A stretch of 64,000 nucleotides of DNA, taken from assembly GCA_914767715.1 (NCBI GenBank), contig OU612069.1, forward strand, positions 64,001-128,000, in the 5' to 3' direction. Below, piece after piece: positions 4,407-61,995 of this stretch (position 1 is the first letter of the stretch; each line of letters opens with the position of its first letter). The notes beneath the pieces are model-generated. The model did not search any database and was not told where the DNA came from. It saw nothing but the letters and a program-made list of their open reading frames with translations. Source of the DNA: Membranipora membranacea. Lineage: Eukaryota > Bryozoa > Gymnolaemata > Cheilostomatida > Membraniporidae. The position numbers and the translations under genes are program-made.

Positions 4407-4552
4407 TTGCCAGTTTGGATTGATACAGCAATAAATAGTAAACAATACTTATCTTATTCTGTCTATTCCAGAGAGCTCACAGCTATTTCTTCACACAGAA
4501 AGTTTAGCAGCTTATCTTGTCAGATTCACTATTTGTGATATTTTTTTGAACT

Positions 4553-9700: not shown

Positions 9701-12350
9701 TTAATCTCATACTATCCAAATCTCATACTATCCCAATCTAATCCTATCCCAATCTAATCCTATCCCAATCTCATACTATCCCAATCTCATACTATCCCAA
9801 TCTCATACTATCCCAATCTCATACTATCCCAATCTCATACTATCCTTAATCTCATACTATCCCAATCTCATACTATCCCAATCTCATACTATCCCAATCT
9901 CATTCTATCCTTAATCTCATACTATCCCAATCTAATCCTATCCCAATCTAATACTATCCCAATCTCATACTATCCCAATCTAATCCTATCCCAATCTCAT
10001 ACTATCCCAATCTCATACTATCCCAATCTCATACTATCCAAATCTCATACTATCCCAATCTCATACTATCCCAATCTCATACTATCCCAATCTCATACTA
10101 TCCTTAATCTCATACTATCCTTAATCTCATACTATCCAAATCTCATACTATCCCAATCTAATCCTATCCCAATCTAATCCTATCCCAATCTCATACTATC
10201 CCAATCTCATACTATCCCAATCTCATACTATCCCAATCTCATACTATCCCAATCTCATACTATCCCAATCTCATTCTATCCTTAATCTCATACTATCCCA
10301 ATCTAATCCTATCCCAATCTAATCCTATCCCAATCTAATACTATCCTTAATCTAATACTATCCTTTATCACAGTCGTGTCACTGAGACAACTAGAGAGAC
10401 GGTACGCTGATGTGACACTTCATAACCAAACCCCCTCAGGTATCAGAGAGAATCAGAATAGCAGACAGATAGAGGGCAGTGCAATGAGAGTCACGGATAT
10501 GTGAGTTATACTTACCTATATTATGCTATATAATAAATATTATATTATACATCACAAGTGAGTGATTTAGTTTTATTCATACAGACATTGATAGAGATGA
10601 TAATGGGGGGTCTTAAAATCAGAAAGAGCGATGCTTTACTAAAGCAAGATATCACTATCACATTGCTCAAAATTACTCACTTGGTCTTTCAATGAAAAAA
10701 ATTCGCTTCGCAATTGCTCACTCGGAATGTATCAATGACTGTGCGATTTGAAAGCGAGAGCCTAGCAGGTATCGCTCACTCACTGATCACGATCAGATTG
10801 CCATTTGGCTGTGTCTTATTGAAAGACCCCTTGATGCCTTACTCTCCAGTTGTGGCTCTCTTTAGTATTAAACTTTTGATTTAGTTCCTTAGCCCTTATT
10901 ATTTTGTTGCCCTGATACCCGAGTCAGCCCAAAACAGTACCTTAAATACCTCTAAGTTCAGTTCTACTTATTTAACACCGCATATCATAGCATTTCAGTT
11001 TTTATCCTTCATTTATATTCATAATGTATTTTTAGAGTATATAGTAGTTTCAATGATAATAAAGACACTTATATGAAGACAACTCCTGACAAAACAAAAT
11101 CTCCACCCTCCATACTAACTACTCATAATCAACCTGCTGATATTACTCTGTCTGTTAGTCCTCGTCATAGTATAACAGGTAAGTAAGCCCCGCCTCCACT
11201 GATATTACTCGGTCTGTTAGTCCTCGTCATAGTATAACAGGTAGGTAAGCTCCGCCCCTACTGATATTACTCTGTGTGTTAGTCCCCGTCATAGTATAAC
11301 AGGTAAGTAAGCTCCGCCCCTTCTGATATGACTCGGTCTGTTAGCCATCATCATAGTATAACAGGTAAGTAAGCTCCGCCCCTACTGATATTACTCGGTC
11401 TGTTAGTCTTCGTCATAGTATAACAGGTAAGTAAGCCCCGCCCCTACTGATATTACTCGGTCTGTTAGCCATCATCATAGTATAACAGGTAAGTAAGCCC
11501 CGCCCCTACTGATATTACTCGTTCTGTTAGTCCTCGTCATAGTATAACAGGTAAGTAAGCCCCGCCCCTACTGGTATTACTCGGTCTGTTAGTCCTCGTT
11601 ATAGTATAACAGGTAAGTAAGCCCCGCCCCTACTGGTATTACTCGGTCTGTTAGTCCTCGTTATAGTATAACAGGTAAGTAAGCCCCGCCCCCACTGGTA
11701 TTACTCGGTCTGTTAGTCTTCGTTATAGTATAACAGGTAAGTAAGCCCTGCCCCTACTGATATAACTGTCTGTTAGTCCTCGTTATAGTATAACAGGTAA
11801 GTAAGCCCCGCCCCTACTGGTATTACTCGGTCTGTTAGTCCTCGTTATAGTATAACAGGTATTTTAGTCCTCACACTGTCAGAACTGGACTAACCTCATG
11901 TTTTAGGCCCTCATTTCTTTTTGAATGAACGAAATAAAAATGAGGCCTTTTAGATGAGTCTGCAAGGGAGTGGCCCTGGTGCAATGGGTCTTACGTTTCT
12001 AACAAGGTATCACTATAAACTATAGACTATAAATGAATGTGAGTTGTTTTTTGGAGGAGGCTGTAGTTGACTTTTGTTTGTGATCTTCTGTGGCCATCAT
12101 TTGGCATTGAGGTTGAAGCAGGGAAGTCAATACGATATGCAGAGTATATCTCAGTCCCCCTCCTCAGTGTTACTCTCACAGCTCGCTGACCCATCACTCT
12201 TATATTGTAGCTGCTGCTGCTGAGTCTTCTGATACAGATTCTGTACTCGGCTCAGTACGTAAGCTGGCTCATAGTCTGCTTATATCTGATAGTGAGGACG
12301 AAGATGTCACTACCTGTTGTGATGATAAAGAGAATCAGCGCAAGGTGTAA
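6701..12350 (+). CDS. Coiled-coil protein gene, 5 exons seen (5' end missing)
   Basis: Exons by splice signals and frame: 6701-6795, 7154-7373 (alternative end 7418), 10374-10500, 11036-11178 and 12211-12350 (TAA). Junction phases agree throughout: 0 after the first exon, then 1, 2 and 1. Donors are gtaaat, gtaagt, gtgagt and gtaagt; acceptors are ctatag, tttcag, cacag, tttag and gtag. The peptide is heptad-like and Glu/Arg/Gln-rich in the first three exons (for example LEETLLTLSRDLDQRQ), then Ser/Pro-rich (SPPSILTTHNQ), with an acidic end SDSEDEDV and a DKENQ tail. AATAAA overlaps the stop. I do not recognise the family; a cytoskeletal or centrosomal coiled-coil protein is possible. Upstream exons were not found. 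Introns contain a large minisatellite, a MITE and a repeated splice donor. Confidence 0.68.
7359..7470 (+). repeat. Three tandem copies of an exon end with its splice donor (45 bp)
   Basis: The segment gggaactcgctaaaactagt with following aagt recurs with donor-like gtaagt at 7374, 7419 and 7463. The first two are 45 bp apart and in phase 1. The third is 44 bp further, out of phase, and lies after an in-frame TGA at 7433-7435. Either of the first two donors joins in frame to the next exon at 10374. Confidence 0.75.
7896..10360. repeat. 16-bp minisatellite, about 150 copies, inside an intron
   Basis: The unit is tatcccaatctcatac with variants (aatcctatccc, tatccttaatc). It fills nearly the whole intron between the exons ending at 7373 and starting at 10374. 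The plus strand is rich in pyrimidines and purine-poor, and the last units merge into the tract before the acceptor at 10373. Confidence 0.96.
10605..10830. mobile_element. MITE, GGGGGGTC family, copy 1 (226 bp)
   Basis: Starts ggggggtctt and ends gaaagacccc, giving imperfect terminal inverted repeats. The interior (agagcgat, cactatcaca, gcgagagcctagcaggtatc) matches the copy at 51513-51757. It lies in the intron 10501-11035. No coding capacity; a non-autonomous DNA element. Confidence 0.75.
11138..11862 (+). repeat. 62-bp tandem repeat: exon end plus 5' splice site, about 12 copies
   Basis: Each unit holds the last ~42 nt of the exon 11036-11178 followed by gtaagtaagccccgcccct. The first copy is the real exon end (ACAG/gtaagt at 11178/11179); the rest lie in the next intron. 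Most copies keep a perfect gtaagt; the last has gtattt. Because 62 is not a multiple of 3 and TAA follows (GGT AAG TAA), using any later donor would put a stop in the message. Confidence 0.88.
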
Positions 12351-13467: not shown

Positions 13468-13793
13468 TGTAAGGGTCTGCTGTCCTTACAAGTTGTGGTG
13501 GGTATTTGTGATCATTTAGAAGTACTACGCTACTTCGTTGCAACTTATTAACTGGTTTATTTGATAGTAAAACTTATATATATATATGAGACATAATATA
13601 TCTAAACCAATAGTAATACAGCAGTTCATATGATGGTAACAAAATGTAATCAGGATACAGCGAGCAAATGAATATTCAATCAATTAATTTCGATGACAGC
13701 ACAATCAGTCATGAATCTTGGCACATTCTTAACATGATGACATTAATGATGATGATATGAATTTGTCTATTCACATCTGATGTCATCCTTACA
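13468..13793 (-). repeat. 3' LTR of env-bearing element
   Basis: Ends are TGTAAGG and CCTTACA, a perfect 7-bp inverted repeat. The sequence equals 22923-23248 except for one substitution near 13596 (ataatat versus ataaaat). Confidence 0.95.
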
Positions 13794-13804
13794 CCTCCCC
13801 TCTC
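13794..13804 (-). other. Polypurine tract
   Basis: The minus strand reads GAGAGGGGAGG immediately before the 3' LTR, the expected second-strand primer. Confidence 0.8.
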
Positions 13805-15618
13805 AGGCGAAGCCGATAGAGTTTGTTGTATCTTGTCGTAATGTTAGCTTCTGGAATTGTTGAGTAGTTGGTAGTCGATGATGTAGTTGGTGAAGATCTA
13901 TTGTGGTCAGGTAAGGGGGGGGGGGGAGTTTTGGTTCTTGTAGGTTTATCTCTCAGCTTAGATTGTTCTTTGTTGTTGTTTGGTGTTGTTGGGGATTTCT
14001 TGGTATGTTGGTTGTTGATGAGGCTGCTGTTTGTTGATGTGGTGTTGTTGATTCTTAATCAGCCTTCAGTGTTCATCTCTGGTGCATTCTGTTGATGTAT
14101 CAGGAGTTGTCCTCTTTTACTGTAGGAGAACATGACTTGTCTTAGTTGTGTAATGAAGGTCATTAGGTTGGGTAGACTTCATTGTTTGTGCCATACTTCA
14201 CTAAAATTGTACTGCCTTTTCAACTCAGGGTTTAACGCTTCCGCTGTGTATACTGGATTACTTTCGGTTACCATCATAGGGATCAGTCGCACTAGTATGG
14301 TTTTACTCAAGAAAGTCCGAAGGACTATTCTGTCTCTGAAAGTAATAAAATGTATTCATTAAAAATATTAATCAGCTAATCTACATGTAAATGTTCAATG
14401 TAAAGAATATTATGTTATGCATTGGTTGTATCCGATTAAAAGATATTAAAATTTTATAGATCATTTAATTATGAAGGTGATTCATGCCACTAAATACATG
14501 AGGAATGCAATTTCTTTTTGTTTTTATGGTTGTCTATCAATAGAATGTATCCCTCCCCTCTCAAGTTTCAATGTCAATATGTCATATCTTTAAACTTAAC
14601 TTAAGGGTTATTATTCCACTCCATCTCTTCTCCGATCCAGTCATACTAGAGGGTTTCATCACTCAGACCATCCATTACAATGTCCTTCACATTCCACTAC
14701 CATGCCGATTCATCCTTCACTCCATCGGAAATCCAGGTGCTGAATGCACACAGGTACAGCCCATCTTGACAATCAAGAGCTGTGACACACACCAGAGATG
14801 GAAGTCTTCGGCAGACCAGTAGTAGGAGGCGCCAAACTCCCCTGGCTTCTTTATCCTATATACGACCATCTCTTTGAACTCGGTGAGGTCAGAAGAAAGA
14901 TTCCAGATCCACGCAGCACTGTTTTCCATGTCCACAGTGTGCGATGTCTCCATCCAAGCAATTTTCCAGTCCAGGTCCCGCCATACCACTCGTCCATAGA
15001 GTGTGAAGATTCCAAATCCAGGCAGCACTGTTTTCCATGTCCACAGTGTGCGATGTCTCCATCCAAGCAATTTTCCAGTCCAGGTCCCGCCATACCACTC
15101 GTCCATAGAGTGTGAAGATTCCAAATCCAGGCAGCACTGTTTTGCATGTCCACAGTGTGCAATGTTTCCATCCAAGCAACTTTCCAGTCCAGGATACGCC
15201 ATACCACTCCTCCATAGAGCATCAAGACTCCAGATCCACAGAAGAGAGACTGCTCAATCCAAGTGGCCAGCCAAAAGAGTGCACAACAACTCAAAACGCA
15301 CTCAAAATATTCAGGTGGGACCAATTTCGTCTTAGATACCAATTCTCTTTTCTTTTATTTTATTTTTATTTATTTTTTTTTTTTTTTGTAATAAGCACAT
15401 GTGATAATTTTGGATATTAATTGTGGGTAATAATTTTTTTTGGGCACAATTAGATGTCAATTGAATAACACATCGTTCAGCCAGACATCACCAATGTTAT
15501 TGTATATGCCCATGCCATAGCAATGAAGCAGTTAGTTTATAGCGGTTATTATTAAGTCAGATACATTTATAAATTGAATAATAATTGCATAAGCTGTCAT
15601 AAGTGTATGTGGAAGGGA
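13805..15618 (-). other. Long 3' non-coding region of the env-bearing element
   Basis: About 1.8 kb lies between the pol stop and the polypurine tract, much longer than usual for this group. It contains a G-run at 13916-13927, T/G-rich sequence (13860-14100), a triplicated 109-bp unit and a T-run near 15376. Minus-strand frames up to 163 codons cross the repeats in shifting frames and show no known domain. Confidence 0.6.
14899..15225. repeat. Three tandem copies of a 109-bp unit
   Basis: Copies begin at 14899, 15008 and 15117, with a partial fourth at 15226. The first two are nearly identical; the third differs at several sites. 109 is not a multiple of 3, so any frame shifts between copies. 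Confidence 0.93.
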
Positions 15619-18600
15619 TTAGTTATTCCTAGCTCGTAGATTATAGCCATGTGAACTTGTCTTAGTAGAGCCATCCTGAGCTGGTGTAGCGGAGTTAGAA
15701 GCCGGAACGGCCACAGCAGGATTAGTTGCTGGTTTCCTCTTTACAGATACATAGCTGGCGGGAGTAAAATCGGATGTCAAAGGTGCCTTAGCTTTCTTCA
15801 AACGTACCAGGTGGGTAGTGAACTGAGTTCCCACTGGCAAACCAGTTGTGCCTAGTGCCCTAACATCAGCATTTAACCCATTCAACATAACAATCAGATA
15901 AGGCCCTTGATATGAAGAAGAAAATTTCTTAACATTGCCAACTGCCACATGGGGAACCTTGACGTAAACCACATCCCCAACCTTATATTGATGTCCGTTA
16001 GTATTAAGATCATGGTAGTATTTATAGTTAGTTTGCGCACATTCCAAGTTATCCCTTGCCAATGCCCATGCAACCTTCAAGGAATCATGCATTTCCTCAA
16101 CGGGGTTTTTGTTTTCATTATAGCACACACGATCTACAACAGGTACAGCCAGCTCGAAGGGAATAGTTATTTCCCTTCCGCAACTCAGATACGTTGGTGT
16201 AAAGCCTGTTGAAGCATTCTCAGTGTTATTGTAGCTATGAGCAACATATTTGGAAAGCATATCCCAATTAGTCTGCGCCTTATCAATCATTGTAGCCATC
16301 AGATTGGAGAAACTCTGAAAAGAGCGCTCCACCTGCCCGTTAGTGCTTGCCATATAGGGAGTGCAGGTGCGCTTGTCGATGTTTAAAGTCTCTGCCAGTT
16401 TGTTCATTAGACCAGAAACAAATTCAGCCGCATTGTCCGAGACCAATATATTTGGACATCCATGAGGAAGTATCAAATACTCGATCATGCAATCAGCCAC
16501 AGTCTCCATTTTGTGATCAGAAATTGGCCTCATGATTACAAATTTGGAAAAAGAGCACTGTAACCCTAAAATATACTTACTCCCTCTCTCTGTTAAAGGC
16601 AACGGACCAAGTATGTCAAAATGTACCCTGGCGAATGGTTTGTCCTCCGTTTCTAATGGTTGTAGAGGAAAGATAGGGTTGAAAGGGCCCCTTTTCCTCT
16701 GATTGCACTGGATACAAGCAGCTATATATTCCGCAACATCCTTACTCATCCCAAGCCAATAATATTTCCTACTTAGTCTTTTGTATAAACGATTTCTCCC
16801 CACATGGCACCCAAATAATGAATTATGATACACATTCAACAAGTCAAATTTCATTATTTCAGGGACACATAGTAAGGGTCTGAGAGCATCCAGCGGATTA
16901 TAATATAATACGCCATCTTGCCTAACGTAATAACGTTTCTGAGCTAAGATATGCCTGCGCTCCACTGGAGAAAGATTGATTGGATTTGCACCGTCTGTCA
17001 GCAACTCAATAATCTGTTTGAGGAATGGATCTGTAATTTGCTGTTCACGAAATTGCAGCAAATCATCCTTACTACTAGCTAAGCACTCAGCAGTTAGCCC
17101 TATGACACATGAATCAGCTACTTCTATTCTAGAGAGAGCATCAGCCACATAATTTTCCTTGCCAGGTTTGTAAATCACTCTCAAATTATACTCCTGAAGT
17201 TTTAATGAAAACTTGGCCAGTCTCGAGTTCTTGTGGTCGCATGTTAACAACCAACGCAGAGGTGAATGATCAGTTGTGACAATGGTTTCGTGTCCTAATA
17301 TAAAATGCCTGAAGTGCTTGCAAGCTGCAACCACCGCCAACCCTTCTTTTTCATAAGTAGAATAATTTTTCTCACTTTTGTTCAATACACGACTGTAATA
17401 ACCGATTGGATGTAAGCCATCCTCAAATATCTGACATAGCTGTGCACCGATAGCAAAGTTCGATGCATCAGTGTGGATGTGAAAAGGTCTATCAAAAATC
17501 GGATAGCGTAAAACAGGATATGTTGAGAGTTTATCTTTCAAAACTCTGAAACTTTCAGAACAAGATCGCGTCCAGTCAAATGTAGCATCACTCTTAGTCA
17601 ATTCCAACAATGGTTTTGCCAAATCTGAGAATTTGTGAATATATGTCCGATAATAGGACATAGCTCCTAGGGCGCGCTTGAGTTGGGTTATATCAGTTGG
17701 TTCTGGATAACGGTTGATTTTGTCAACCAGACCGGGTGCAGGCTTGCACCCAAATTCATTGTACACATTTCCCAAATATTGCACCTCAGATCTAGCCCAT
17801 TTTGATTTTGCAGGATTGATCTTTACGCCATGTTTGATCAGCCTATCAAGAACTTGCCCAACTCTATGCATGTGGTTGTCTAAATTCCTATCACTAAATA
17901 TTACAATGTCATCAAGAAAACATTGACAGGTCACCCACTGAAGGTTTGATAAAATCACGGACATTGCTCTCTGAAAAATAATACTGGAATTACAAAAGCC
18001 AAAAGGTACTCTCAAATAACGATACGTACCTTTATGAGTGACAAATGTCGATCGCTCCCTATCCTCAGGATTTTCCATTTTCAAATTCCAAAATGCCTTA
18101 ATGAGATCAATAGTGGTAAACAATCCACTCTGACCGGCTAACATCTCCTTGATACTATCTGGGTGAGGTAATGGGAATGACAGGGTATGTGTTACGGCAT
18201 TGACCTTTCTATAATCTTGCACAATTCTCAAATCAGTAGTCCCAGCCTTTTTAACAAGCAAACAAGGCGATGCCCAAACACTGGAATTAGGTGCCTTTTC
18301 AATGATATTATGTTTCAGCATTTTGTCAATTTCCTTATTCAGAGCATCTTTATAAGCTACAGGCACTCTATAAGGTTGGGATCTAACAGGTCTAGCATCA
18401 CCAATATCACAAACCCTTCCAGTCAATCCTTTTACCTCACCAACATCATACTTGTGAAAGGCGAACACAGACTTTTTAGTACCTAGAAAAGAAAGAAAAC
18501 GCTTGCGTTCATGTGTGTTCAACGGTGATTTAGCTAAATCAATTCTAGAAATTGGATCCGCAGTCTCTGATTTATTGTCTTCTTTGACTTTGCCATTCAA

Positions 18601-21600
18601 TGTTTCATTCAGATTACTATCCTTTATTTGTACAGATTGCTGTTGAGTAACTGTGCCGAGTGGTGTGCCTTGATACACTTTGATATAATTGTCGGACACA
18701 TTTATTACTCTACATCTGATCATTCCATCAGCTGGATTCATAGTTTTGGCAAACATAAGACCACCATGTACAAAGGTAGGTTCATACATAAGCTGTACTT
18801 TAGACTGCGGTCCTTTAAAACAAATCTTATTATCAGACTTTGGAGGGAAAATAACATCCCTGTCCGCAAACACATTGCAGTACTCACGGTTTTCCACAGC
18901 ATCCATTGATAAATCATCACCAGAAGTGACCTGTCCAGACTTCCTTTCCTCACCATTGAATGGCGTGAGGTGTAACTTACCAGTGCTATAATCTAGCACA
19001 AGCTTCCCACAGTGGCGCAAATTATCAGCACCAAGTATAATAGGATATTTACATTCCCCAATCACTAAAAATCTGGCCCTGATTGGGCTCAACCCTGGAT
19101 ATGAAACAATCAAATACACCTCCCCAATTCCTTTAACCACACTACCCGAAACTGATCTTATGGATCTCATGGTACTTGTTATCCTGCACTGAATCATTAA
19201 GACTTTGCACATTTTCATTGTGATTGTCGATAGTTGTGCACCAGTGTCAAACAAGCATTGGTACAAGCCGTTGTCAATATTTAATTGAATGATCGATTCA
19301 TGACGTATCCGTTGAAAATTGCATAACATTTCACCAACTGATATTTTCCTAGCTGCCCTGGCTTTCGCCCGCCGTACAGCTGCCAATGTGACTCTAGTGT
19401 TTGTCAAGGTTTTAGGTCTTGCCCTAGGTCTTACTCTACCACTGGCAGATGAAATTTCATTTAAAACAACAACAGTTGGCTTGGGTTCTGTAATTTCTGG
19501 TTGCTCATGGGAGGGTCCAGGTTGGGGATTAGTTTGCTGTGTAACATTGACATTGATGTTAGACTGCTCCGGTTTGTTATCTTTTCCATGATAATTTCCA
19601 AAGAAATAACGATTCAAATTATCCTTAGGATCCCCTACAAATTGTCTTGCGCCAGTACACATTCTAACTAATGTCCAACAAAGCCTGAATGTTACTAGTA
19701 AACAGCAAAAGAAAATCCATATCTGCTTCCAATCAACAACATCCAATCCAGAAAGGAATGAAAATAAACCGTCTTTGACCACATTATGTGAAAAGACTTG
19801 TGATTGCCCACCCTGATATTCGTCATTAGTATTGTCTGTAATGCCTATCAAATTCCCAAGTATCTTATGTTGATATTGCATGGCACCTGTCAAGTCATTC
19901 AATGTAAATTTTTCTCTAAATAAATGCCAATCATATAATAGTAGTTTATGTATGACAGGTTGACCAATATCGTTTCCCAAATCAGAAAAATCAAGTGCTA
20001 TCGTATTCAGCTTGTCAATGCCACTGGCCCTCCTGACAGTCCCATCAACATGTGCATAGAAGAATAATTCTCCATCAATTACCATTGGAATCTCCTGATT
20101 TAATGCGCAATCAATGAGGCTTGGAGTGTCATGTAGAATGTTGTTATGAGGGTTTAACCACATAGTTCTGTTGGTGACACCTAATGAAACAGCCATTGGA
20201 ATTCTTTTCGTGCATTGTTCTGGTGAAGAGATCATCTCATAGTGGTCTACTGGCTGACAAGGATAGATGGTTATGAAATCATGTAGTTTCTGTGCATAAA
20301 TGTATGAATTATTCAACAGATGTCTCGCAGCCAGAATAGGATGTTCATCAAGTGATACAAGTAAAAGATCAGCCATCTTCATCATATTTTGACAAGTTAG
20401 CCTAAATGTCGTGTGAAACATCTGGTTAAAATTCTGTGAAACATGTATTTCAATTGCCTGTAGTCTAGAATTCAATTCAGTCGCTAAAACAGTCCCCTCT
20501 ATCTGTCGTTTCTCCCTTGTCTTAGTCAGGTCACCAACTTTAACTGCAACACCCTGGTCAGTTATGTCTACAAACCCGCCACAGTCCTCGTTTTGCTGAA
20601 TACGCTTTGGGTTTGCAAAAGTCAAGGCCAATTCCCCGTCATTTGATAGCCAAGTCCTGTCCTGTAGCTTTCCTTGATAGAATATATGCGGTAAGTAGAG
20701 ACATTTTTCTTTTTCATTTTGTGTCCACAACAGTCCTGATTCATCAAACAAATTACAAAAACCTGAATGGTAGTCACAGTGAGCTGTGCTACCCACAGGA
20801 CTCTGCATGTCCTCATCTTTACCATGTCTGATAAATACCACAGATTCATAGAGAAAAGCATTCTTTGATGAAAATTCATAATCAGTGCAGCACTTAAATC
20901 CTGTGTGATACTCAAAATCAGTTGTAATTTGAGTTTGGTATATTCCACCTATTTCAGTCATGTCACCAAAAGGTGCCCTTTTAAATTGTACCATGTTTCT
21001 GCAAGTTTCCATTGTCACAAGTTCATTTGTGTGTGTAGTTGTCCTATTTCTATTCTCACCAAAAAATCCTGCATGTGTTGTGATGTCAGTTCTGATTATT
21101 TTACAGTGATGTGCCTTGGATTTATATTGAATCAGATTTGGTTTGAACAAAGTCACATCCTGGTCTATTGGTGCATGCAAGTCCATGTGGCCACGTTTGA
21201 GATCACAACCTGATAGTTTTGGCAGTCTGAATTTAGCAACCGGATGATCAGTTTTGCATATCATTGGTGTTGTTGTATCCACATTACCGAAAAAACCTAA
21301 GAGGGTCATACAAATAGCTAAGCTGACAAAACCCAGTCCAGATGTTTGTCTCGATTTGGAAATTTTTGTTCCAGTCCTTGTTTTCTTTGACACACCCTGT
21401 GGCGTGTCACTTGAAATTTCAGTGGTCACATTACTGTCGTTATGGTCCGTGTCATCAATCATATCAATAGCACATGTGTCAAATAAACAGTTGTCAAACT
21501 CGTCATAATGCATGTTGTCTGTATTTTCAGATGGTTGATTAATATCTGGATCTGGAGGCTCCTGAGGGACCTGAGAATTGGCCATAGTGTGAGCACCACG

Positions 21601-22890
21601 ACCTCCTCTGCCTCTGCCTCTACCACGTGCGCGTCCCCTAGACTGATTGTAACCTCTATTATTATTATTATGTTGACTCTGTTGATAGTATGTCTTGGGA
21701 CATTCCCTTGCATAGTGGTCAGGCGCATTGCAAACAAAGCAGCGCCTTTGTCCTTGTTTGTTTTGACTAGTGTTACCGTTATACCCTCCCCGGTAATTTT
21801 GATTAGGGTTACTGTTGAATCCTCTGTTATAACTATCAAATGCATTTACGTTCAGCTGTGAAGCTTTTAGACCAGTTTCTGCCCCGCTGGCAGCCTGGTA
21901 CAACTCAGTTAGAGTTTTATTGGTCAATGGCATAACTGCCTCCTTGATGCCCATTTTTAATCCCATTCTGAAATACAGCAAAATGAATGGAGATGTCTCA
22001 TCTAAATCACTTTGAGCAACAGTTTTACGAAAGCGCTCAAAATAGGTTCCCACGCTTTCATTTGACTGTTGCTGCATGTTTGCCAGTTCCATGGCAGCCT
22101 GCTCGCCCCCTTTACCAGCTCTGACCTTTGAGCTGAATAGCTTTCTGATTAAACTGTAACTACCTGAGGCATTCTCCCTCACTACTTCTCTTAAATAGGT
22201 AGCTGCAAGATCTTTAACATACAAGCCTAGTAACATAACATGGTGCTCCGTAGGCACGTCATTCAGCAAGCAGCATGTTTCAAATTGGGTCAGGAAAGAT
22301 TCTACATCTTCATCTGACTTTGCAGTAAATTTGAGACCAAACTTTACCCAATCTTTCTTTCCTGAGTTATTTGAATTACTGCTTGCTGAAGGATAACTCT
22401 TACCTGGGGTTGGTGTTTGTTTAACGATCAGCTGTGGCTGTGTCCTCAGGGGTGTATTGATAACTGGTGTTGTAGCCATCCGTTGCATTGCTGTCCTTGA
22501 TCTTTCATTTGCCATTTTTGTCATCATCTGTTTTCCCATCTCATCCATTTGCTTTGTCATCTGCTCAGTGAGCTGTTTCATTAGCTGTTTTTGTTGAGCA
22601 GCAAATGTTAGTGTTAACTGCACAAGCTCCTCCTTCCTCGCTTCCTCCTGGGCCTGCATATCCTGCCTGATAACTTCCATGTCATCATACATTTGTTGAA
22701 GAGCCTCGTCTACTGGCTCCTCTTCCTCCTCCTCGAGGTTGCGGTCGGCCTCCTCGCCACCGTCATATTCATTGCGGTCGACCTCCTCGCCACCGTCATT
22801 TTCGTTGCGGTCGACCTCCTCGCCACCGTCATTTTCGTTGCGGTCGACCTCCTCGCCACCGTCATTTTCGTTGAGATTTCCAGGATCCAT
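15619..22890 (-). CDS. Gag-Env-like-Pol polyprotein (2,423 codons, single frame)
   Basis: The start chosen is the Met at 22890, just after the primer-binding site; the frame is open further into the LTR. N-terminus: four copies of an 11-residue acidic repeat (ENDGGEEVDRN), a coiled-coil stretch, a gag capsid-like region and one CCHC knuckle (CFVCNAPDHYAREC, about 384), then an Arg-Gly tract. Next comes a ~600-residue glycoprotein-like block: hydrophobic segment about 516-534, many Cys, sequons (NRT, NNS), furin-type REKR about 795, and a TM helix about 1056-1079 (WIFFCCLLVTF). Then protease DTG (about 1215), RT with FLDD (about 1660), RNase H TDAS (about 1809), integrase zinc finger (2020-2065), DDE core (FDILGPL, SDNAAEF, NGQVER) and a C-terminal tail. 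No stop or frameshift interrupts it. The env-like family was not assigned. Pol order is gypsy-like. Confidence 0.9.
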   Translation of the reverse strand: MDPGNLNENDGGEEVDRNENDGGEEVDRNENDGGEEVDRNEYDGGEEADRNLEEEEEEPVDEALQQMYDDMEVIRQDMQAQEEARKEELVQLTLTFAAQQKQLMKQLTEQMTKQMDEMGKQMMTKMANERSRTAMQRMATTPVINTPLRTQPQLIVKQTPTPGKSYPSASSNSNNSGKKDWVKFGLKFTAKSDEDVESFLTQFETCCLLNDVPTEHHVMLLGLYVKDLAATYLREVVRENASGSYSLIRKLFSSKVRAGKGGEQAAMELANMQQQSNESVGTYFERFRKTVAQSDLDETSPFILLYFRMGLKMGIKEAVMPLTNKTLTELYQAASGAETGLKASQLNVNAFDSYNRGFNSNPNQNYRGGYNGNTSQNKQGQRRCFVCNAPDHYARECPKTYYQQSQHNNNNRGYNQSRGRARGRGRGRGGRGAHTMANSQVPQEPPDPDINQPSENTDNMHYDEFDNCLFDTCAIDMIDDTDHNDSNVTTEISSDTPQGVSKKTRTGTKISKSRQTSGLGFVSLAICMTLLGFFGNVDTTTPMICKTDHPVAKFRLPKLSGCDLKRGHMDLHAPIDQDVTLFKPNLIQYKSKAHHCKIIRTDITTHAGFFGENRNRTTTHTNELVTMETCRNMVQFKRAPFGDMTEIGGIYQTQITTDFEYHTGFKCCTDYEFSSKNAFLYESVVFIRHGKDEDMQSPVGSTAHCDYHSGFCNLFDESGLLWTQNEKEKCLYLPHIFYQGKLQDRTWLSNDGELALTFANPKRIQQNEDCGGFVDITDQGVAVKVGDLTKTREKRQIEGTVLATELNSRLQAIEIHVSQNFNQMFHTTFRLTCQNMMKMADLLLVSLDEHPILAARHLLNNSYIYAQKLHDFITIYPCQPVDHYEMISSPEQCTKRIPMAVSLGVTNRTMWLNPHNNILHDTPSLIDCALNQEIPMVIDGELFFYAHVDGTVRRASGIDKLNTIALDFSDLGNDIGQPVIHKLLLYDWHLFREKFTLNDLTGAMQYQHKILGNLIGITDNTNDEYQGGQSQVFSHNVVKDGLFSFLSGLDVVDWKQIWIFFCCLLVTFRLCWTLVRMCTGARQFVGDPKDNLNRYFFGNYHGKDNKPEQSNINVNVTQQTNPQPGPSHEQPEITEPKPTVVVLNEISSASGRVRPRARPKTLTNTRVTLAAVRRAKARAARKISVGEMLCNFQRIRHESIIQLNIDNGLYQCLFDTGAQLSTITMKMCKVLMIQCRITSTMRSIRSVSGSVVKGIGEVYLIVSYPGLSPIRARFLVIGECKYPIILGADNLRHCGKLVLDYSTGKLHLTPFNGEERKSGQVTSGDDLSMDAVENREYCNVFADRDVIFPPKSDNKICFKGPQSKVQLMYEPTFVHGGLMFAKTMNPADGMIRCRVINVSDNYIKVYQGTPLGTVTQQQSVQIKDSNLNETLNGKVKEDNKSETADPISRIDLAKSPLNTHERKRFLSFLGTKKSVFAFHKYDVGEVKGLTGRVCDIGDARPVRSQPYRVPVAYKDALNKEIDKMLKHNIIEKAPNSSVWASPCLLVKKAGTTDLRIVQDYRKVNAVTHTLSFPLPHPDSIKEMLAGQSGLFTTIDLIKAFWNLKMENPEDRERSTFVTHKGTYRYLRVPFGFCNSSIIFQRAMSVILSNLQWVTCQCFLDDIVIFSDRNLDNHMHRVGQVLDRLIKHGVKINPAKSKWARSEVQYLGNVYNEFGCKPAPGLVDKINRYPEPTDITQLKRALGAMSYYRTYIHKFSDLAKPLLELTKSDATFDWTRSCSESFRVLKDKLSTYPVLRYPIFDRPFHIHTDASNFAIGAQLCQIFEDGLHPIGYYSRVLNKSEKNYSTYEKEGLAVVAACKHFRHFILGHETIVTTDHSPLRWLLTCDHKNSRLAKFSLKLQEYNLRVIYKPGKENYVADALSRIEVADSCVIGLTAECLASSKDDLLQFREQQITDPFLKQIIELLTDGANPINLSPVERRHILAQKRYYVRQDGVLYYNPLDALRPLLCVPEIMKFDLLNVYHNSLFGCHVGRNRLYKRLSRKYYWLGMSKDVAEYIAACIQCNQRKRGPFNPIFPLQPLETEDKPFARVHFDILGPLPLTERGSKYILGLQCSFSKFVIMRPISDHKMETVADCMIEYLILPHGCPNILVSDNAAEFVSGLMNKLAETLNIDKRTCTPYMASTNGQVERSFQSFSNLMATMIDKAQTNWDMLSKYVAHSYNNTENASTGFTPTYLSCGREITIPFELAVPVVDRVCYNENKNPVEEMHDSLKVAWALARDNLECAQTNYKYYHDLNTNGHQYKVGDVVYVKVPHVAVGNVKKFSSSYQGPYLIVMLNGLNADVRALGTTGLPVGTQFTTHLVRLKKAKAPLTSDFTPASYVSVKRKPATNPAVAVPASNSATPAQDGSTKTSSHGYNLRARNN

Positions 22891-22897
22891 CTCAACT

Positions 22898-22920
22898 TTC
22901 AAATCCCACTTCTGACACCA
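22898..22920 (-). other. Primer-binding site of env-bearing element
   Basis: Two bases inside the 5' LTR the minus strand reads TGGTGTCAGAAGTGGGAT, beginning with TGG as expected for pairing with a tRNA 3' CCA. It differs from the TGGCGAC site of the other two gypsy elements. The tRNA was not identified. Confidence 0.75.
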
Positions 22921-22922
22921 GA

Positions 22923-23248
22923 TGTAAGGGTCTGCTGTCCTTACAAGTTGTGGTGGGTATTTGTGATCATTTAGAAGTACTACGCTACTTCGTTGCAACT
23001 TATTAACTGGTTTATTTGATAGTAAAACTTATATATATATATGAGACATAAAATATCTAAACCAATAGTAATACAGCAGTTCATATGATGGTAACAAAAT
23101 GTAATCAGGATACAGCGAGCAAATGAATATTCAATCAATTAATTTCGATGACAGCACAATCAGTCATGAATCTTGGCACATTCTTAACATGATGACATTA
23201 ATGATGATGATATGAATTTGTCTATTCACATCTGATGTCATCCTTACA
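22923..23248 (-). repeat. 5' LTR of env-bearing element
   Basis: Same 326-bp sequence as 13468-13793. A TATA-like run (alternating TA) lies at about 23028-23042 and could serve as the minus-strand promoter. Its outer end is 65 bp from the start codon of the neighbouring lectin gene, which is transcribed the other way. Confidence 0.93.
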
Positions 23249-23313: not shown

Positions 23314-25935
23314 ATGAAAGCATTTCTAGCTTTAGCAGTAAATATACTTGTCATGTTATTAACGGTAGGTACAATCTTTATGTTATTAACGGTAGGTACA
23401 ATCTTTATGGTTTTATGAAAAACATAAATAAATAAATGTGTGATGACTCGTACATGTGGAACAATTTATCATTGAAAACACATAAATTAATTTATATTAC
23501 GAGATCTATTTTTGCTATTTCTCGTTAGCACATGCATTGTAAATGATCCTTTTCTATGGTTATACTACATAACAATCACAGGCTCAGCCATTGAAAGCAT
23601 TCAGATAATTTGAGAAACGAAAATTGAGCAGATTATCTGGCAAAAACTTAAGATTGCAATAAGCTCAGCTTATATTTTGGCTCTCAATCACTATGGTTCC
23701 ATGCTTCGATTTTGTGGTTCACTCCAATTTCGAATGGTTAGAATCGAGTGGGTTCTAACCATTCCCATGATGGAAAATACATGAAAAACATCTGCCGCGT
23801 CTAATCCCTTTGTGTGCAAGCGCGCTAACCATTCAGCCAAAAGGTCATTTGTCACAACCTGAGGGTGACTTTGAAGTTATTTCCATGGGGCGATTACTCC
23901 CGAAATCCTTACAAAATCGCAACATGGAATCATAGTGTATGTCTCACAGAGGAAACTCATCAAAATCATTATTATTATCTTATTAGCACCTGTATTACTA
24001 ACGCCTAACATATTTCGTTATTTTCTCTTGTAGAATGCATCAAGTCATATCACCAATCGGGATATGACATTAGTTCATACGGAGGACTGTTTGGGAGCAC
24101 ACACTGTGACTGCAGCTGGTGGTGGTGTCAACATCTTACATTGCGCTCTGCACTGTCTAGAGGAGGCTGATTGTATCGCTGTGGGATTTACCAGGATCTC
24201 AGGCTCATGTAGACTAAGCTCCAGTCTATTCTCTCAGACTCATCCAAACTCTGACTGTTCAGTAGGAGAGTCCGTGTATAAATCAGGTACGTCTGAGAAG
24301 AAAGATCTATAATGGTTATTATTCTAAAGCCGTTCATATATATATATTATTTTGTATGTATGTATATTATATATACATAATATGTGTATTCATGTATATA
24401 AACGACTGTAGCTCAGTGGTTTAGGGTTGGGTCTCTAATGCAAAAGTCCGAGATACCATGTTGATATCTCCTGGTGACTGACAGGGTTTCAGGAAGGGCC
24501 TTTTATCCTGTGTCACACTTAAATACTTAAGGCCTCCCATCTGCATGGTTCAAGGCAATACCACCACCATAGTCAAGATAATCTACAAGGAGACTGGCCA
24601 GTTGCGAGCAACATATCATACCAACTGGTAACAATGTAGAATGGAAACGGGTGAAATAAAAAACCTTTAAACTGCCTCTGTCTGTTAGCATGGCACGGAT
24701 GGCCGATAGGCAATAGACTCTGCAGACATTTATTGACATTATGTATGAAGCTAGACTAATGAATACCAGTGCATTTGAGGCGTCGATAAATGACTAAACT
24801 TATTAAACATGTAAGCCTTTAGATGATTTGTTCGTGGTTCAGTTCAAAATCAGCTGAGAGAGTTACATATTATGTGATTTCTTATCAGTTCATTATCATG
24901 CTGTCATATCTGGATCTGGTATGTGGTTCTCTCTCTCACCGCTATATACTGTTTCTTACTGCTCACTGCTGTATTTATAGTTGGAGCTGTCACTACTAAG
25001 TCATGTGACCGAGATGATGACTGGTATCCCAGTGCTACAGGTGACACCTGTATTAAGATGTTCTTACAGGCTGTCACGAGAGAAACTGCCCTGTCAGATT
25101 GTGTCAGTGAGGGAGGGGCACTTGCTAGATGGAGAACTCAGGATTCTATGGATATGTTTGAGGATCTCTGCTCAAATAGCAGCACAGGTAAATCATTTTC
25201 TCTGTTTGATTTTTCAATGCCACCTGAGACATTGATAACAAACGGGCTACGAGGTCAATTAAAAGTTGTGATAACTGGCTCATCAAATTTAGGAAGCAGA
25301 TATCACCAGGCTTGGCCAGATCTCACTCTATTACCTTGAGGAGATTCATTAGTTCTATTAGAGTATTTATAGCCTCTGACTGCTGACTCCCTCAAAAAAA
25401 CTTTCGGAGATGAAAACTTTGCTTTTCTTTTATGGACACTGTCAACTTATCGTGTAGAACCTTTGTATTTTTCTCACCTAGTCCGCCGTGTTGCAGGATG
25501 TTCGGTATACCTGTATACCTGCTGTAAAGTAGCGTTTAAGATTTATATGGTGTACGTCTCAGTAGATTATAATGTGTAGTCAAACTAAAAACCTCCTTTT
25601 TGAGTTTGTCAATAATGACTACTGTGACATTGCGAGGGAATGTACCAAAACTTGTCACTCTCAGCTCATAATTATATCCTCTCACAGGCTGGTCAGGTAA
25701 CAATGACGGAGTCTGGACAGATCTACTGAAGGTAGCTGATGTGTGGCAGTGGAGCGATGGTAGTACTGATATAGTTAACTGGAGTGACGGTACGTCAGGA
25801 GTAATAAACTGGGGATCCGGTCAGCCCGACGGAGGGGCAGACTGTACGCAGCTGTGGAGGAGTAATCAAGACTACAAGGTCGACGATGTCGGCTGTTCAG
25901 CTCATCGCCAATATGTCTGTGAGAAAACAAAGTGA
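23314..25935 (+). CDS. Secreted PAN/apple plus C-type lectin protein (gene A)
   Basis: Exons: 23314-23364 (or to 23391), 24034-24286, 24981-25187, 25688-25935 (TGA). Phases 0, 1 and 1 agree; total 252 residues. Exon 1 encodes a signal peptide (MKAFLALAVNILVMLLT). Exon 2 is a Cys-rich PAN/apple-like module (EDCLG...C..C...DCIAVGFT...C). Exons 3-4 form a C-type lectin domain: start SCDRDDDWYPSATGDTC, WTDL and WSDG core, QPD (typically galactose-type calcium-site motif), and a final VDDVGC..YVCEK. The WND motif is altered to VDD, so Ca-dependent binding is uncertain. A secreted lectin for recognition or adhesion is inferred. A paralogue lies at 28065. A candidate AATAAA is at 26548. Confidence 0.8.
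23349..23402 (+). repeat. 27-bp tandem duplication across the exon 1 splice donor
   Basis: atgttattaacggtaggtac followed by aatcttt occurs twice in a row, duplicating the end of the signal-peptide exon and its gtaggt donor. Both donors (23365 and 23392) are in phase 0, and the 27-nt extension is open. Confidence 0.88.
23740..23850 (-). mobile_element. Possible tRNA-like SINE fragment
   Basis: The minus strand has an A-box-like GGCTGAATGGTTAGCGCGC and further on GGTTAGAACCC, a weak B-box. No tail or target duplication was identified. It lies in intron 1 of gene A. Confidence 0.3.
24403..24670 (+). mobile_element. Possible tRNA-derived SINE
   Basis: Begins with a tRNA-like head, gtagctcagtggtttagggt, in intron 2 of gene A. 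The B-box is poor (ataccatgttgatatctcc). The end is uncertain, perhaps at the A-rich gaaataaaaaacc. Confidence 0.4.
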
Positions 25936-28064: not shown

Positions 28065-30833
28065 ATGAAGGTTTCTGTATATTTTACAGTGATTAATATC
28101 CTCCTTCTATTTTTAAAGGTGAGTATATAGAAGTGGACTTGTAGGTAGTTATAATATTGGTTTAAGATATAATTGTGATGTCACTGTTCAGGTATATCTA
28201 CAGAATGTGTTTTATTGTAATTTTAATTAACTTATTATTTTACATGTCAGAGTTGAAAGACAAAATTGAAACAGAGTTTCAATGAATTAACGGAATTGTG
28301 TAAATATCCCTGTTGCTATATTTCAAGTTATTTGTGGAACTGAGGAATTCGAAACTGAGCAGCTCAATTAATTTCATTTTTTCTTATTGATAAACTAACA
28401 TCACTTGTAGAATGCATCCAGCCATATCACCAATCAGGATAGGACATTAGTTAATACAGAGGACTGTCTGGGATCAGACATTGTGACTGTATCTGACGAT
28501 GAGAGTAACTTCAAGCAATGTGCTCTTCTTTGTGTCGAGGAGGCTGATTGTATAGCGTTTGGTTATACCAGGATCTCAGGCTCATGTAGACTAAGCTCCA
28601 GTCTATTCTCTCAGAATCATCCAAACTCTGAATGTTCTGTAGAAGAGTCTGTGTATAAATCAGGTACATTGTAGGTTTATCCATATACCCACATATATAC
28701 ATATTATATATATATATATGTGTATCAAAAACGATCATGCTAATCTGTATCATATATCATCTAAAGATAAACTATACACAGTAGAGCAGGCTTATCATCT
28801 AAAGATTAACTATACACAGTAGAGCAGGCTTATCATCTAAAGATTAACTATACACAGTAGAGCAGGCTTATCATCTAAAGATTAACTATACACAGTAGAG
28901 CAGGCTTATCATCTAAAGATTAACTATACACAGTAGAGCAGGCTTATCATCTAAAGATTAACTATACACAGTAGAGCAGGCTTATCATCTAAAGATTAAC
29001 TATACACAGTAGAGCAGGCTTATCATCTAAAGATTAACTATACACAGTAGAGCAGGCTTATCATCTAAAGATTAACTATACACAGTAGAGCAGGCTTATC
29101 ATCTAAAGATTAACTATACACAGTAGAGCAGGCTTATCATCTAAAGATTAACTATACACAGTAGAGCAGGCTTATCATCTAAAGATTAACTATACACAGT
29201 AGAGCAGGCTTATCATCTAAAGATTAACTATACACAGTAGAGCAGGCTTATCATCTAAAGATTAACTATACACAGTAGAGCAGGCTTATCATCTAAAGAT
29301 TAACTATACACAGTAGAGCAGGCTTATCATCTAAAGACTAACTATACACAGTAGAGCAGGCTTATCATCTAAAGATTAACTATACACAGTAGAGCAGGCT
29401 TATCATCTAAAGATTAACTATACACAGTAGAGCAGGCTTATCATCTAAAGATTAACTATACACAGTAGAGCAGGCTTTCGTCGCTTCCGTCGCTGCTGTA
29501 GTTGTTGTTGACATTGTTTTTGTCATCTTAGAGTCATTACTAACATATACCTGTGAGTTTGTTTAAAACATTGGCTCTGTCTTCAAAAGGCTGACTGTCA
29601 CTGCTCTCTCACTGCTCCCTCACTGCTCCCTGCTGTATTTATAGTGGAAGTCGAGGCTACTCGGTCATGTGATCGAGATGATGACTGGTATCCCAGTGCT
29701 ACAGGTGACACCTGTATTAAGATGTTCTTACAGGCTGTCACAAGAGAGGCTGCCCTGTCAGATTGTGTCAGTGAGGGAGGGGCACTTGCTAAATGGAAAA
29801 CTCAGGAGTCCGTGGATATGTTTGAGAGTCTCTGCTCAAACAGCAGCACTGGTAAGTAGTTCACTGATGAGAAACATAAAATTAAGACCAAGAATTGAAA
29901 GGTCATATAACAAATTTCTAATTAGTTGAAACAGCAGGAAGAATCTGTATTATTCACAAATAGAAAGCAGGGGGCCAGGAGAATGTCTTTGTGCTATGTC
30001 TCGTCTGTGATTCACTAGTTTATGTGTACCAGCCCTTCCTGAGCTCCTGTCAGAATGAGTAGTATGTAGTTGCCAATGTAATGTTACAATCAGCGACCGA
30101 GGCGGCAGCTAAACTACTCGTCAAAATTTCTCTATAGCTAATATAAAACTAATTGAGGCTTTTATCCCAGAATTTCGACCTTGAGTGCAATTCATTTTCA
30201 CAAACAGACCAGCTATTTTATACTGTGTCACTAGTTAAAGTTAATGATATCACTGAGCCGTTTATCTGCCTGATTTTGATGATCGGTTTCTGCGAATAGC
30301 GAATGCTCATAAGATGATAATTCTGAGATTGAAGCCTAATTCTGTTATCTTTGAGCTTTCCAGAAATCAAAGAGCACACATTAACCTGTGTAGTAACAGA
30401 GTAGTTTAGGCACCTTAACTAGTGCCCAGCAAATGATTTCCAAGTAATGTTAAATAATTGGTTATGACATAAACTGGATATGTTGGCTGAGGACTTTGTG
30501 TGCATTGCTTGACAATATCAAACATTGAGTAGCACCCCCATTTTGGTGTATTTACTTGCTTGGTAGTTGAGAAGAGGAATACTTTCAGTATCAGCAGCTC
30601 ACCATCTCTCCTCTCTCTCAGGTTGGTCTGGTAATCATGGTGGGATCTGGACAGATCTTATGAAGGTTGATGATGTTTGGCAGTGGAGTGACGGTACTAC
30701 CGATGTAATTAACTGGGCAGAGAATCAGCCTGATGGAGGAGCAGACTGTACTTAATTTTGGAGACATAACATCAAGTTGGATGATGCCGGCTGTACAGCT
30801 AGACTGCAGTATGTCTGTGAGAAAGCAAACTGA
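28065..30833 (+). pseudogene. PAN/apple plus C-type lectin gene B, premature stop
   Basis: Exons: 28065-28118 (signal peptide MKVSVYFTVINILLLFLK), 28411-28663 (PAN/apple-like), 29645-29851 and 30622-30833. Exons 2 and 3 have exactly the lengths of gene A (253 and 207 nt), and the phases match. In the last exon an in-frame TAA at 30753-30755 sits where gene A has Gln after ADCT. Reading continues in frame afterwards to TGA at 30831-30833 (LDDAGCTA..YVCEKAN), so this is a point change, consistent with CAA to TAA. The product would stop after QPDGGADCT and lose the end of the lectin fold, including the last conserved Cys residues. It could be a pseudogene, a null allele, or encode a shortened protein; a sequencing error cannot be excluded. 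A candidate AATAAA is at 31244. Confidence 0.75.
28755..29477. repeat. 38-bp minisatellite, about 19 near-identical copies
   Basis: The unit starts cttatcatctaaagattaac and ends tagagcagg. Almost every copy is identical; one has agacta and the first differs slightly. It lies in intron 2 of lectin gene B. There are no spacers, so it is not CRISPR-like. Confidence 0.97.
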
Positions 30834-61310: not shown

Positions 61311-61498
61311 CTCATCCCACAGCACATTCCAATCCACCATTGCCACCTTATGAAACACAGCGTACGTGTTAGGATTATTGGCCTTACATGGCCCATTGCT
61401 GGGACCCCTTGTAGAAGGTTTTAGCTGTCTTTCCAGCTTGTCAGCATGTCTTTCCATGCTGTCACATGTCTTTTCATGAGTCAGTCAGTAGACAAGTA

Positions 61499-61965: not shown

Positions 61966-61995
61966 TTAATCTTCTGAACAGGTACGAGACAACCA

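What the first reader, a model, noticed from the sequence alone, without database searches (positions are those of the whole stretch)
19600..21560. Envelope-like glycoprotein fused in frame between gag and protease
Seen: one uninterrupted 2,423-codon frame runs gag (CCHC knuckle) - hydrophobic segment - Cys-rich ~600-residue block with sequons, furin-type REKR and a TM helix - DTG protease - RT - RNase H - integrase. Known: in retroviruses, errantiviruses and Cer-type or Athila-type elements, env is a separate frame after pol, usually spliced. Inference: here the glycoprotein must be released from a gag-env-pol polyprotein, perhaps using the first hydrophobic segment as a signal anchor, which would also put pol on the cytosolic side after the TM. 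The env was presumably captured from a virus; the cleavage-site-plus-TM layout resembles class I-like or mononegavirus-type glycoproteins, but I cannot assign it.
Basis: partly seen in the sequence, partly recalled or inferred. Interest (0 to 1): 0.93.

Follow-up and report, generated by a model that had tools for sequence, protein, structure and literature searches.

The report
Retroelement with envelope inside its polyprotein
A young, virus-like jumping gene in an animal genome carries a membrane-fusion glycoprotein, related to those of negative-strand RNA viruses, in the middle of its one long protein instead of in a separate gene at the end, which suggests that it makes all its parts from one chain threaded through a membrane.

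Summary
Confirmed. A recent LTR retroelement (minus strand, 13468-23248; LTRs 325 of 326 identical, 4-bp target duplication, PBS, PPT) has one 2,423-codon frame: Gag, linker, signal-peptide-like segment, Cys-rich ectodomain with R-x-x-R site, transmembrane helix, protease, RT, RNase H, integrase. The middle block passes the curated cut-off of Pfam PF24664 (Monjiviricetes fusion glycoprotein), so it is a captured viral envelope. A related family elsewhere (two overlapping proteins; 65-76% identical in the ectodomain, 93% in the RT part) keeps glycoprotein, TM, protease and the start of RT in one frame. Ectodomain cysteines, cleavage site and one sequon are conserved. ICTV places Metaviridae Env downstream of integrase; this layout differs. 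Best mechanism: a flavivirus/alphavirus-like polyprotein with cytosolic Gag and Pol and lumenal envelope, cut by signal peptidase, furin and the element's protease. Not shown: expression, processing, fusion activity, fold class (model pLDDT 33), a second copy including Gag, copy number, host name. Splice signals are at background, so a spliced Env is neither supported nor excluded. Rated a new variant of a known kind.

The parts
22923..23248 (-). 5' LTR, 326 nt, TGTAAGG...CCTTACA
   Evidence: 325 of 326 identical to the 3' LTR
22904..22920 (-). primer binding site TGGTGTCAGAAGTGGGA, two bases after the LTR
   Evidence: read directly; complementarity to a tRNA-Leu 3' end is recalled, not tested
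15619..22890 (-). single open reading frame of 2,423 codons plus stop: Gag - glycoprotein - PR - RT - RNase H - IN
   Evidence: read in four pieces
21955..22218 (-). Gag capsid-type domain
   Evidence: PF03732 Retrotrans_gag, 26.5 bits, cut-off 24.1
21694..21744 (-). CCHC zinc knuckle
   Evidence: PF00098, 22.5 bits, cut-off 20.8
21340..21561 (-). linker between Gag and glycoprotein: acidic part, then a basic stretch just before the signal-like segment
   Evidence: 26 of 64 identical to P0005; net charge +6 in the 20 residues before the hydrophobic core
21280..21339 (-). internal signal-peptide-like hydrophobic segment, followed by conserved PMIC[KR]T
   Evidence: hydropathy 2.11; present in 4 of the 4 sequences that reach this region (P0002, P0005, P0007, P0011)
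20104..21162 (-). stretch matching Monjiviricetes fusion glycoprotein PF24664 (profile positions 57-428 of 653)
   Evidence: E 2.9e-09, 35.9 bits, cut-off 27
20506..20517 (-). R-E-K-R furin-type site between GP1 and GP2
   Evidence: R-x-x-R in 4 of 4 aligned sequences (REKR, RSTR, RNRR, RGKR)
19732..20505 (-). GP2-like part of the ectodomain
   Evidence: 166 of 257 identical to P0005, 104 of 251 to P0006
19657..19731 (-). transmembrane segment
   Evidence: hydropathy 2.19 at block residues 616-632; conserved in 3 of the 3 aligned sequences that reach it and in P0012
19015..19287 (-). retropepsin-type protease (DTG)
   Evidence: PF13975 E 1.1e-04, 23.2 bits, below its cut-off of 28.2; the homologue P0012 reaches 28.4
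17770..18255 (-). reverse transcriptase
   Evidence: PF00078 E 4.3e-28
17188..17496 (-). RNase H
   Evidence: PF17917 E 4.8e-34
16354..16866 (-). integrase zinc-binding and core domains
   Evidence: PF17921 E 2.7e-18, PF00665 E 9.4e-10
13805..15618 (-). 1.8-kb region after pol, without a frame long enough for an envelope gene; holds a 109-bp tandem array (14897-15238) and a second PPT-like purine run (14550-14562)
   Evidence: longest listed frames 161 and 163 codons, overlapping the tandem array, none of 200 or more stop to stop
13794..13804 (-). polypurine tract GAGAGGGGAGG
   Evidence: directly before the 3' LTR
13468..13793 (-). 3' LTR
   Evidence: both flanks read TTTA, a 4-bp duplication

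Best explanation
A recently inserted Ty3/gypsy-type LTR retroelement whose ancestor took up a whole Monjiviricetes-type fusion glycoprotein, signal peptide and membrane anchor included, in frame between Gag and protease. Shown: anatomy, homology, the order glycoprotein-TM-protease-RT kept in a related family, young LTRs. Inferred: the full-length RNA is translated into one Gag-Env-Pol chain; Gag is made in the cytosol, the internal signal peptide opens the ER channel, the ectodomain enters the lumen and is freed at its N terminus by host signal peptidase, the TM helix stops transfer, and protease-RT-RNase H-integrase are made back in the cytosol. Furin cuts GP1/GP2 at R-x-x-R, and the element's own protease cuts the two cytosolic junctions (Gag/linker and TM tail/protease). 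The result is an enveloped particle made from one polyprotein, with Gag, Env and Pol made in equal number unless splicing or turnover changes the ratio.
For: Uninterrupted frame with all domains. PF24664 above cut-off in the window and in 2 of the 5 homologues scanned that carry glycoprotein sequence (P0005 E 8.4e-13, P0006 E 6.5e-10; P0007 matches below cut-off; the partial P0011 and P0012 do not match it). In P0005 the match begins at profile position 7, on its signal-like segment. Same order elsewhere: P0005 is one 868-aa frame with glycoprotein and the start of the protease, P0012 one 689-aa frame with glycoprotein end, TM, linker, protease and the first part of RT. P0005 and P0012 overlap with 308 of 319 identical and look like one family. 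Identity of the window to them: GP1 193 of 254, GP2 166 of 257, TM and tail 29 of 46, protease 67 of 100, RT part 160 of 172, linker before 26 of 64, linker behind 43 of 70. All 14 ectodomain cysteines are kept wherever one of the 4 aligned rows has letters; R-x-x-R and the N417 sequon in 4 of 4. LTRs 325 of 326 identical.
Against: No RNA, peptide or activity data. No second copy with Gag in the same frame was seen: P0005 begins at a Met that aligns with the end of Gag, and what lies upstream in its contig was not available. P0006 ends about 110 residues behind its TM without a protease. The model of the glycoprotein is unusable (pLDDT 33.2, pTM 0.24). The heptad test behind the cleavage site is negative, there is no hydrophobic fusion peptide directly behind the site (mean hydropathy -0.09, -0.60, -0.48 in three sequences), and charge on both sides of the signal core is positive. 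The signal peptide was judged by hydropathy and alignment only. The linker behind the TM (61%) is nearly as conserved as GP2 (65%), so the conservation contrast is clear only against the linker before it. The host genome search did not complete.
Confidence: 0.75

Rival explanations
1. The glycoprotein is expressed mainly from a spliced RNA (Env or Env-Pol without Gag, as Env is in errantiviruses), or is spliced out to give an ordinary Gag-Pol; the common frame is then a compact coding trick, not a 1:1:1 polyprotein.
For: [quoted passage not shown] The element holds a strong donor in gag (22403) and a strong acceptor before RT (18483), which would join in frame by my own count, and a weaker acceptor at the gag/glycoprotein boundary (21562). 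A Met eight codons before that boundary lies in a good initiation context by my reading and is the first residue of the homologue P0005; but it would be lost if the acceptor at 21562 were used.
Against: Sites this strong are at the level of other stretches of the window: donors of score 11 or more, 1.02 per 10 kb in the element sense strand against 0 to 7.43 in five control stretches; acceptors of 8.4 or more, 1.02 against 0 to 1.02. The strongest pair would delete glycoprotein and protease together. P0012 shows no break between glycoprotein and pol. The splice scores come from a simple matrix that I wrote from recall, so this is a weak test either way.
Confidence: 0.22
2. The glycoprotein is a passenger: an insertion that the element tolerates, or a domesticated assembly domain, without envelope function.
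For: No function is shown; no canonical fusion peptide behind the cleavage site; the model is poor.
Against: The ectodomain is 65-76% identical to P0005 while the linker before it is 41%; the linker behind the TM, 61%, is no clear contrast. Cysteines, R-x-x-R and a sequon are kept at 39-51% identity to P0006 and P0007. The frame is intact in a recently inserted copy.
Confidence: 0.08
3. A local chimera: a glycoprotein gene landed in one copy of an ordinary element, or the assembly is wrong.
For: Host copies could not be searched (genome search did not complete).
Against: P0005 and P0012 from two other contigs keep glycoprotein-TM-linker-protease(-RT part) in one frame at 61-93% identity by segment; both LTRs and a target duplication enclose the whole.
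Confidence: 0.03

Closest known systems
Anakin, BEL/Pao elements of mosquitoes with a chuvirus glycoprotein (PMC7642597, passages)
   Same: LTR element that captured a glycoprotein of a Monjiviricetes virus (chuviruses belong to Jingchuvirales).
   Different: There the host element is BEL/Pao; here pol shows the Ty3 order and no BEL/Pao-specific model. Here the glycoprotein lies inside the polyprotein before the protease; the passages that I read do not state the position in Anakin.
Errantiviruses / insect ERVs such as gypsy and ZAM (PMC12992720, passages; ICTV Metaviridae profile PMC7879559, passages)
   Same: Ty3/gypsy-type element with an envelope that has signal peptide, furin site and TM.
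   Different: Their Env is of F type, lies downstream of integrase and is typically made from a spliced RNA; here it is before the protease, in frame, and of another Pfam family.
TelKA of bdelloid rotifers (PMC5408684, passages)
   Different: Paramyxovirus F type, as an ORF3.
MDG1 group of Drosophila, e.g. 412 (PMC11952523, passages)
   Same: Metaviridae element with a membrane fusogen-like protein that is not encoded after pol.
   Different: A short (~100 aa) separate frame upstream of gag, FAST-like, not an envelope glycoprotein and not part of the Gag-Pol frame.
Alphavirus and flavivirus polyproteins (recalled, no call)
   Same: Capsid, internal signal, glycoprotein and TM in one chain that crosses the ER membrane.
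   Different: No homology claimed; a works-like comparison only.

Membership tests
Monjiviricetes fusion glycoprotein (PF24664) | profile score above the curated cut-off | tested here: met
   35.9 bits against 27; P0005 47.6, P0006 38; P0007 17.7 is below
Monjiviricetes fusion glycoprotein (PF24664) | ectoprotein with signal peptide and C-terminal TM | tested here: met
   two hydrophobic segments in the right places; hydropathy only, no dedicated predictor
Monjiviricetes fusion glycoprotein (PF24664) | fusion-glycoprotein fold | tested here: inconclusive
   AlphaFold2 with 4 sequences: pLDDT 33.2, pTM 0.24; no solved relative by sequence (only chance-level hits, none)
Monjiviricetes fusion glycoprotein (PF24664) | place in a tree with exogenous viruses | not testable with these tools
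   no exogenous relative was recognised in 2 protein searches or in viral contigs
Ty3/gypsy (Metaviridae) | Gag with CCHC, then PR-RT-RNase H-IN in this order | tested here: met
   the protease model is below its cut-off in the window
Ty3/gypsy (Metaviridae) | LTRs TG...CA, 4-6 bp TSD, PBS, PPT | tested here: met
   TSD range and TG...CA from the abstract of PMC12440569
Ty3/gypsy (Metaviridae) | RT in the Ty3/gypsy part of an RT tree with reference elements | not tested
   no named reference elements at hand; the clade within Ty3/gypsy is open
Ty3/gypsy (Metaviridae) | Env, where present, downstream of the integrase domain | tested here: not met
   statement in ICTV profile PMC7879559; here before the protease
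Errantivirus | F-type Env after pol | tested here: not met
   PF24664 is the only Pfam match of the block up to E 1; longest listed frames after pol are 161 and 163 codons on a tandem array
Anakin / BEL-Pao | BEL/Pao-type pol | tested here: not met
   no BEL/Pao-specific model among the Pfam matches up to E 1; that such models exist in Pfam is recalled
Troyka | 3-bp TSD and CG...CG termini | tested here: not met
   TG...CA and TTTA; criteria from the abstract of PMC12440569

The most novel reading that the evidence does not exclude
A lineage of reverse-transcribing agents that makes an enveloped particle from a single Gag-Env-Pol polyprotein woven through the ER membrane, with Gag, envelope and enzymes at equal number and tethered to one membrane: a third gene plan for retroelements beside 'env after pol, spliced' and 'no env', reached by capture of a negative-strand RNA virus glycoprotein by a Ty3-type element.
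Probability: 0.5. Interest if true: 0.88.

Novelty: new variant of a known kind. Interest (0 to 1): 0.76.

Why it matters
Envelope capture is how retrotransposons become retroviruses, and the captures whose position I saw stated put env behind pol (Roo, Tas, Cer-7; Metaviridae in general). An envelope inside the Gag-Pol frame breaks that rule, needs a membrane topology that none of the passages I read describes for a retroelement, and poses a testable question of stoichiometry: how does a particle assemble when each Gag brings one envelope and one polymerase? A 2023 survey reports Gypsy fragments beside Jingchuvirales glycoproteins in several insect orders but no clear capture by Gypsy elements (PMC10084718, passages). 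I saw no report of this layout in the listings of ten full-text searches of the held open-access library; these searches were not all aimed at layout, their lists were capped, only 11 papers were opened (passages, and one outline), and subscription papers are not in the library.

Tried and rejected
Structure: AlphaFold2 on the block with 4 sequences gave pLDDT 33.2. I did not interpret a fold from it; one attempt at a fold search met a busy machine. Fusion class (I or III) stays open. The literature seen points both ways: mononegavirus fusion proteins form a class I clade in Viro3D (PMC12583693, passages), chuvirus glycoproteins were modelled on type B glycoprotein templates (PMC7642597, passages).

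Heptad test (3.5-residue periodicity, five stretches, 2,000 shuffles each): the value is reached by 57% (window 360-410), 16% (window 405-432), 2.5% (window 552-606), 94% (P0005 384-434) and 41% (P0006 174-224) of shuffles. One of five below 5% is not support.

Codon usage: the glycoprotein block correlates with PR-RT at 0.89 and with Gag at 0.62, but the same block read in wrong frames or antisense gives 0.66, 0.79 and 0.73 with PR-RT, so this is weak. The Gag column was out of frame and is not used.

Splice sites: at background, see rivals.

Viral contigs: 33 stretches matched a peptide pattern, none encodes a relative. Solved structures: chance-level hits or none. Rfam: 0 matches at gathering score in the window. 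RNA fold of 13768-14100, which spans the start of the 3' LTR: no excess structure (z 1.14).

Of the 8 proteins, P0012 carries the glycoprotein end; P0013 begins about 30 residues before the protease and P0014 behind it, too late to tell; P0015, P0016 and P0017 also begin shortly before the protease; P0019 has a Gag-like region, by my reading, directly before the protease; P0018 was not read. Only P0012, P0013 and P0014 were compared with the block by BLAST.

Full report
What is there. The finding lies inside one LTR retroelement on the minus strand, 13468-23248. Its LTRs are 326 nt, TGTAAGG...CCTTACA, 325 of 326 positions identical. TTTA lies on both sides, a 4-bp target duplication. A primer binding site follows the 5' LTR by two bases, and a purine tract GAGAGGGGAGG abuts the 3' LTR. 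Near-identical LTRs and an open frame mean a recent insertion.

The frame. From the ATG at 22890 to the stop at 15619 there are 2,423 codons. Read in four pieces and scanned against Pfam, they give Gag (PF03732, PF00098), a middle block, protease (PF13975; 23.2 bits, below the 28.2-bit cut-off, but with DTG and in the right place), RT (PF00078), RNase H (PF17917) and integrase (PF17921, PF00665). The order after the middle block is that of Ty3/gypsy elements. RT was not placed in a tree.

The middle block. Its only Pfam match up to E 1 is PF24664, Monjiviricetes fusion glycoprotein, E 2.9e-09, 35.9 bits against a cut-off of 27. Monjiviricetes holds Mononegavirales and Jingchuvirales. The block has a hydrophobic segment at residues 75-94, preceded by net +6 charge in 20 residues and followed by TTPMICKT; REKR at 349-352; and a TM segment at 616-632. 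So the captured gene seems complete, from its own signal peptide to its own anchor; in P0005 the Pfam match starts at profile position 7, on the signal-like segment.

Relatives. A search of 5.8 billion predicted proteins gave 3 hits among 3,378 candidates; with the alignment of these, 4 among 4,366; a search with protease-RT gave 8 at E 1e-60 or better among 7,070. P0005 (868 aa) has the glycoprotein and the start of the protease in one frame. P0012 (689 aa) has the glycoprotein end, TM, linker, protease and the first part of RT in one frame. The two are nearly identical where they overlap (308 of 319; the end of P0005 looks frame-shifted) and probably belong to one family. So the conserved order rests on one related family beyond the window. 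P0006, P0007 and P0011 add glycoproteins whose link to pol could not be seen; P0006 ends about 110 residues behind its TM without a protease. Identity of the window to P0005/P0012 is 76% in GP1, 65% in GP2, 63% in TM and tail, 67% in protease, 93% in the RT part, and 41% and 61% in the linkers before and behind the glycoprotein. The glycoprotein is thus held about as tightly as the protease and more tightly than the linker before it; the linker behind it is no clear contrast. All 14 ectodomain cysteines are conserved wherever one of the 4 aligned rows has letters; R-x-x-R and the N417 sequon occur in 4 of 4. The sequon at 172 is shared with P0005 but not with P0007, that at 464 with P0005 but not with P0006; the other row is a gap in each case.

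Contrast. In P0019 (34% identical over about half of the query) a Gag-like region, by my reading, runs straight into the protease. In another frame of this same window (231-4448) the half that I scanned has Gag, protease and RT together without a glycoprotein, the first two at E 1.9e-04 and 1.4e-04, just below their cut-offs. This suggests that the glycoprotein was inserted in the lineage of the present element. The state of the nearer relatives P0013 and P0014 is unknown, because they start about 30 residues before the protease and behind it.

How it most likely works. Shown: one frame, two hydrophobic segments, conserved cleavage site, cysteines and sequon. Inferred: translation of full-length RNA makes Gag in the cytosol; the signal peptide targets the chain to the ER; signal peptidase cuts near PMICKT; the ectodomain is glycosylated and later cut at R-x-x-R; the TM helix leaves protease, RT, RNase H and integrase in the cytosol; the protease frees Gag and Pol from the membrane pieces. 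It works like the structural polyprotein of an alphavirus or the polyprotein of a flavivirus (recalled comparison), without claim of kinship. A 1:1 Gag:Pol ratio is not prohibitive, since single-frame elements exist: Cer1 has no stop between gag and pol (PMC10309623, passages) and the ICTV profile lists elements with one gag-pol gene. Against a simple class I reading: no hydrophobic peptide directly behind the cleavage site and no heptad signal there.

The main rival is splicing. Insect Metaviridae typically make Env from a spliced RNA (PMC12992720, passages). The element has one strong donor (22403) and one strong acceptor (18483), but at densities found elsewhere in the window, and joining them would remove glycoprotein and protease together. 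A weaker acceptor sits exactly at the boundary where I cut Gag from the middle block (21562). A Met eight codons before it has a good context by my reading and is the first residue of P0005, but would be lost if that acceptor were used. RNA data would decide.

What is known. [quoted passage not shown] Captures in the passages read: chuvirus glycoprotein by BEL/Pao (Anakin, PMC7642597), paramyxovirus F by TelKA (PMC5408684), an envelope likely from baculovirus by errantiviruses (PMC12440569; F type in PMC12992720). A short fusogen-like frame upstream of gag is known in the MDG1 group (PMC11952523), and additional frames upstream or downstream of gag-pol are mentioned in PMC8220671, so positions other than after pol are not unheard of for separate frames. 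A 2023 survey found Gypsy fragments beside Jingchuvirales glycoproteins in insects but no clear capture by Gypsy elements (PMC10084718). In the listings of ten text searches I saw no Gag-Env-Pol layout. I therefore rate it a new variant of a known kind: the kind is a Ty3-type element with a captured envelope, the variant is its place inside the polyprotein.

Limits. The host is an animal, to judge by lectin and sushi-type exons, but is not named. Copy number, expression, fusion activity and fold class are unknown; no structure model could be used; the second half of the frame 231-4448 was not scanned.

Noticed in passing
window 231-4448, minus strand: Another Ty3-type frame of 1,405 codons; its first half (2340-4448) holds Gag, protease and RT together, without a glycoprotein. 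It serves as a same-genome contrast; the second half was not scanned.
   Followed up: partly
window 59506-62685, minus strand: Ty3-type pol pieces in separate frames: a protease piece (below its Pfam cut-off) and an RNase H-integrase piece.
   Followed up: partly
window 7902-10363: A 16-bp satellite of about 152 copies with almost no G on the + strand (GC skew -0.997 over 8001-10000).
   Followed up: no
window 14897-15238 and 14550-14562: A 109-bp tandem array and a second PPT-like purine run between pol and the true PPT.
   Followed up: partly
window 22738-22873: The N-terminal part of gag has a 33-bp (11-residue) tandem repeat, about 4 copies, acidic.
   Followed up: no
window 25672-25935 and 51717-52142: C-type lectin and sushi-domain exons on the + strand, so probably host genes of an animal; two further frames at 24034-24312 and 28411-28674 resemble each other by eye.
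   Followed up: partly
window 32021-32941: Long array of a 12-bp unit (TCTACTACTACC), open in several frames, probably by composition alone.
   Followed up: no
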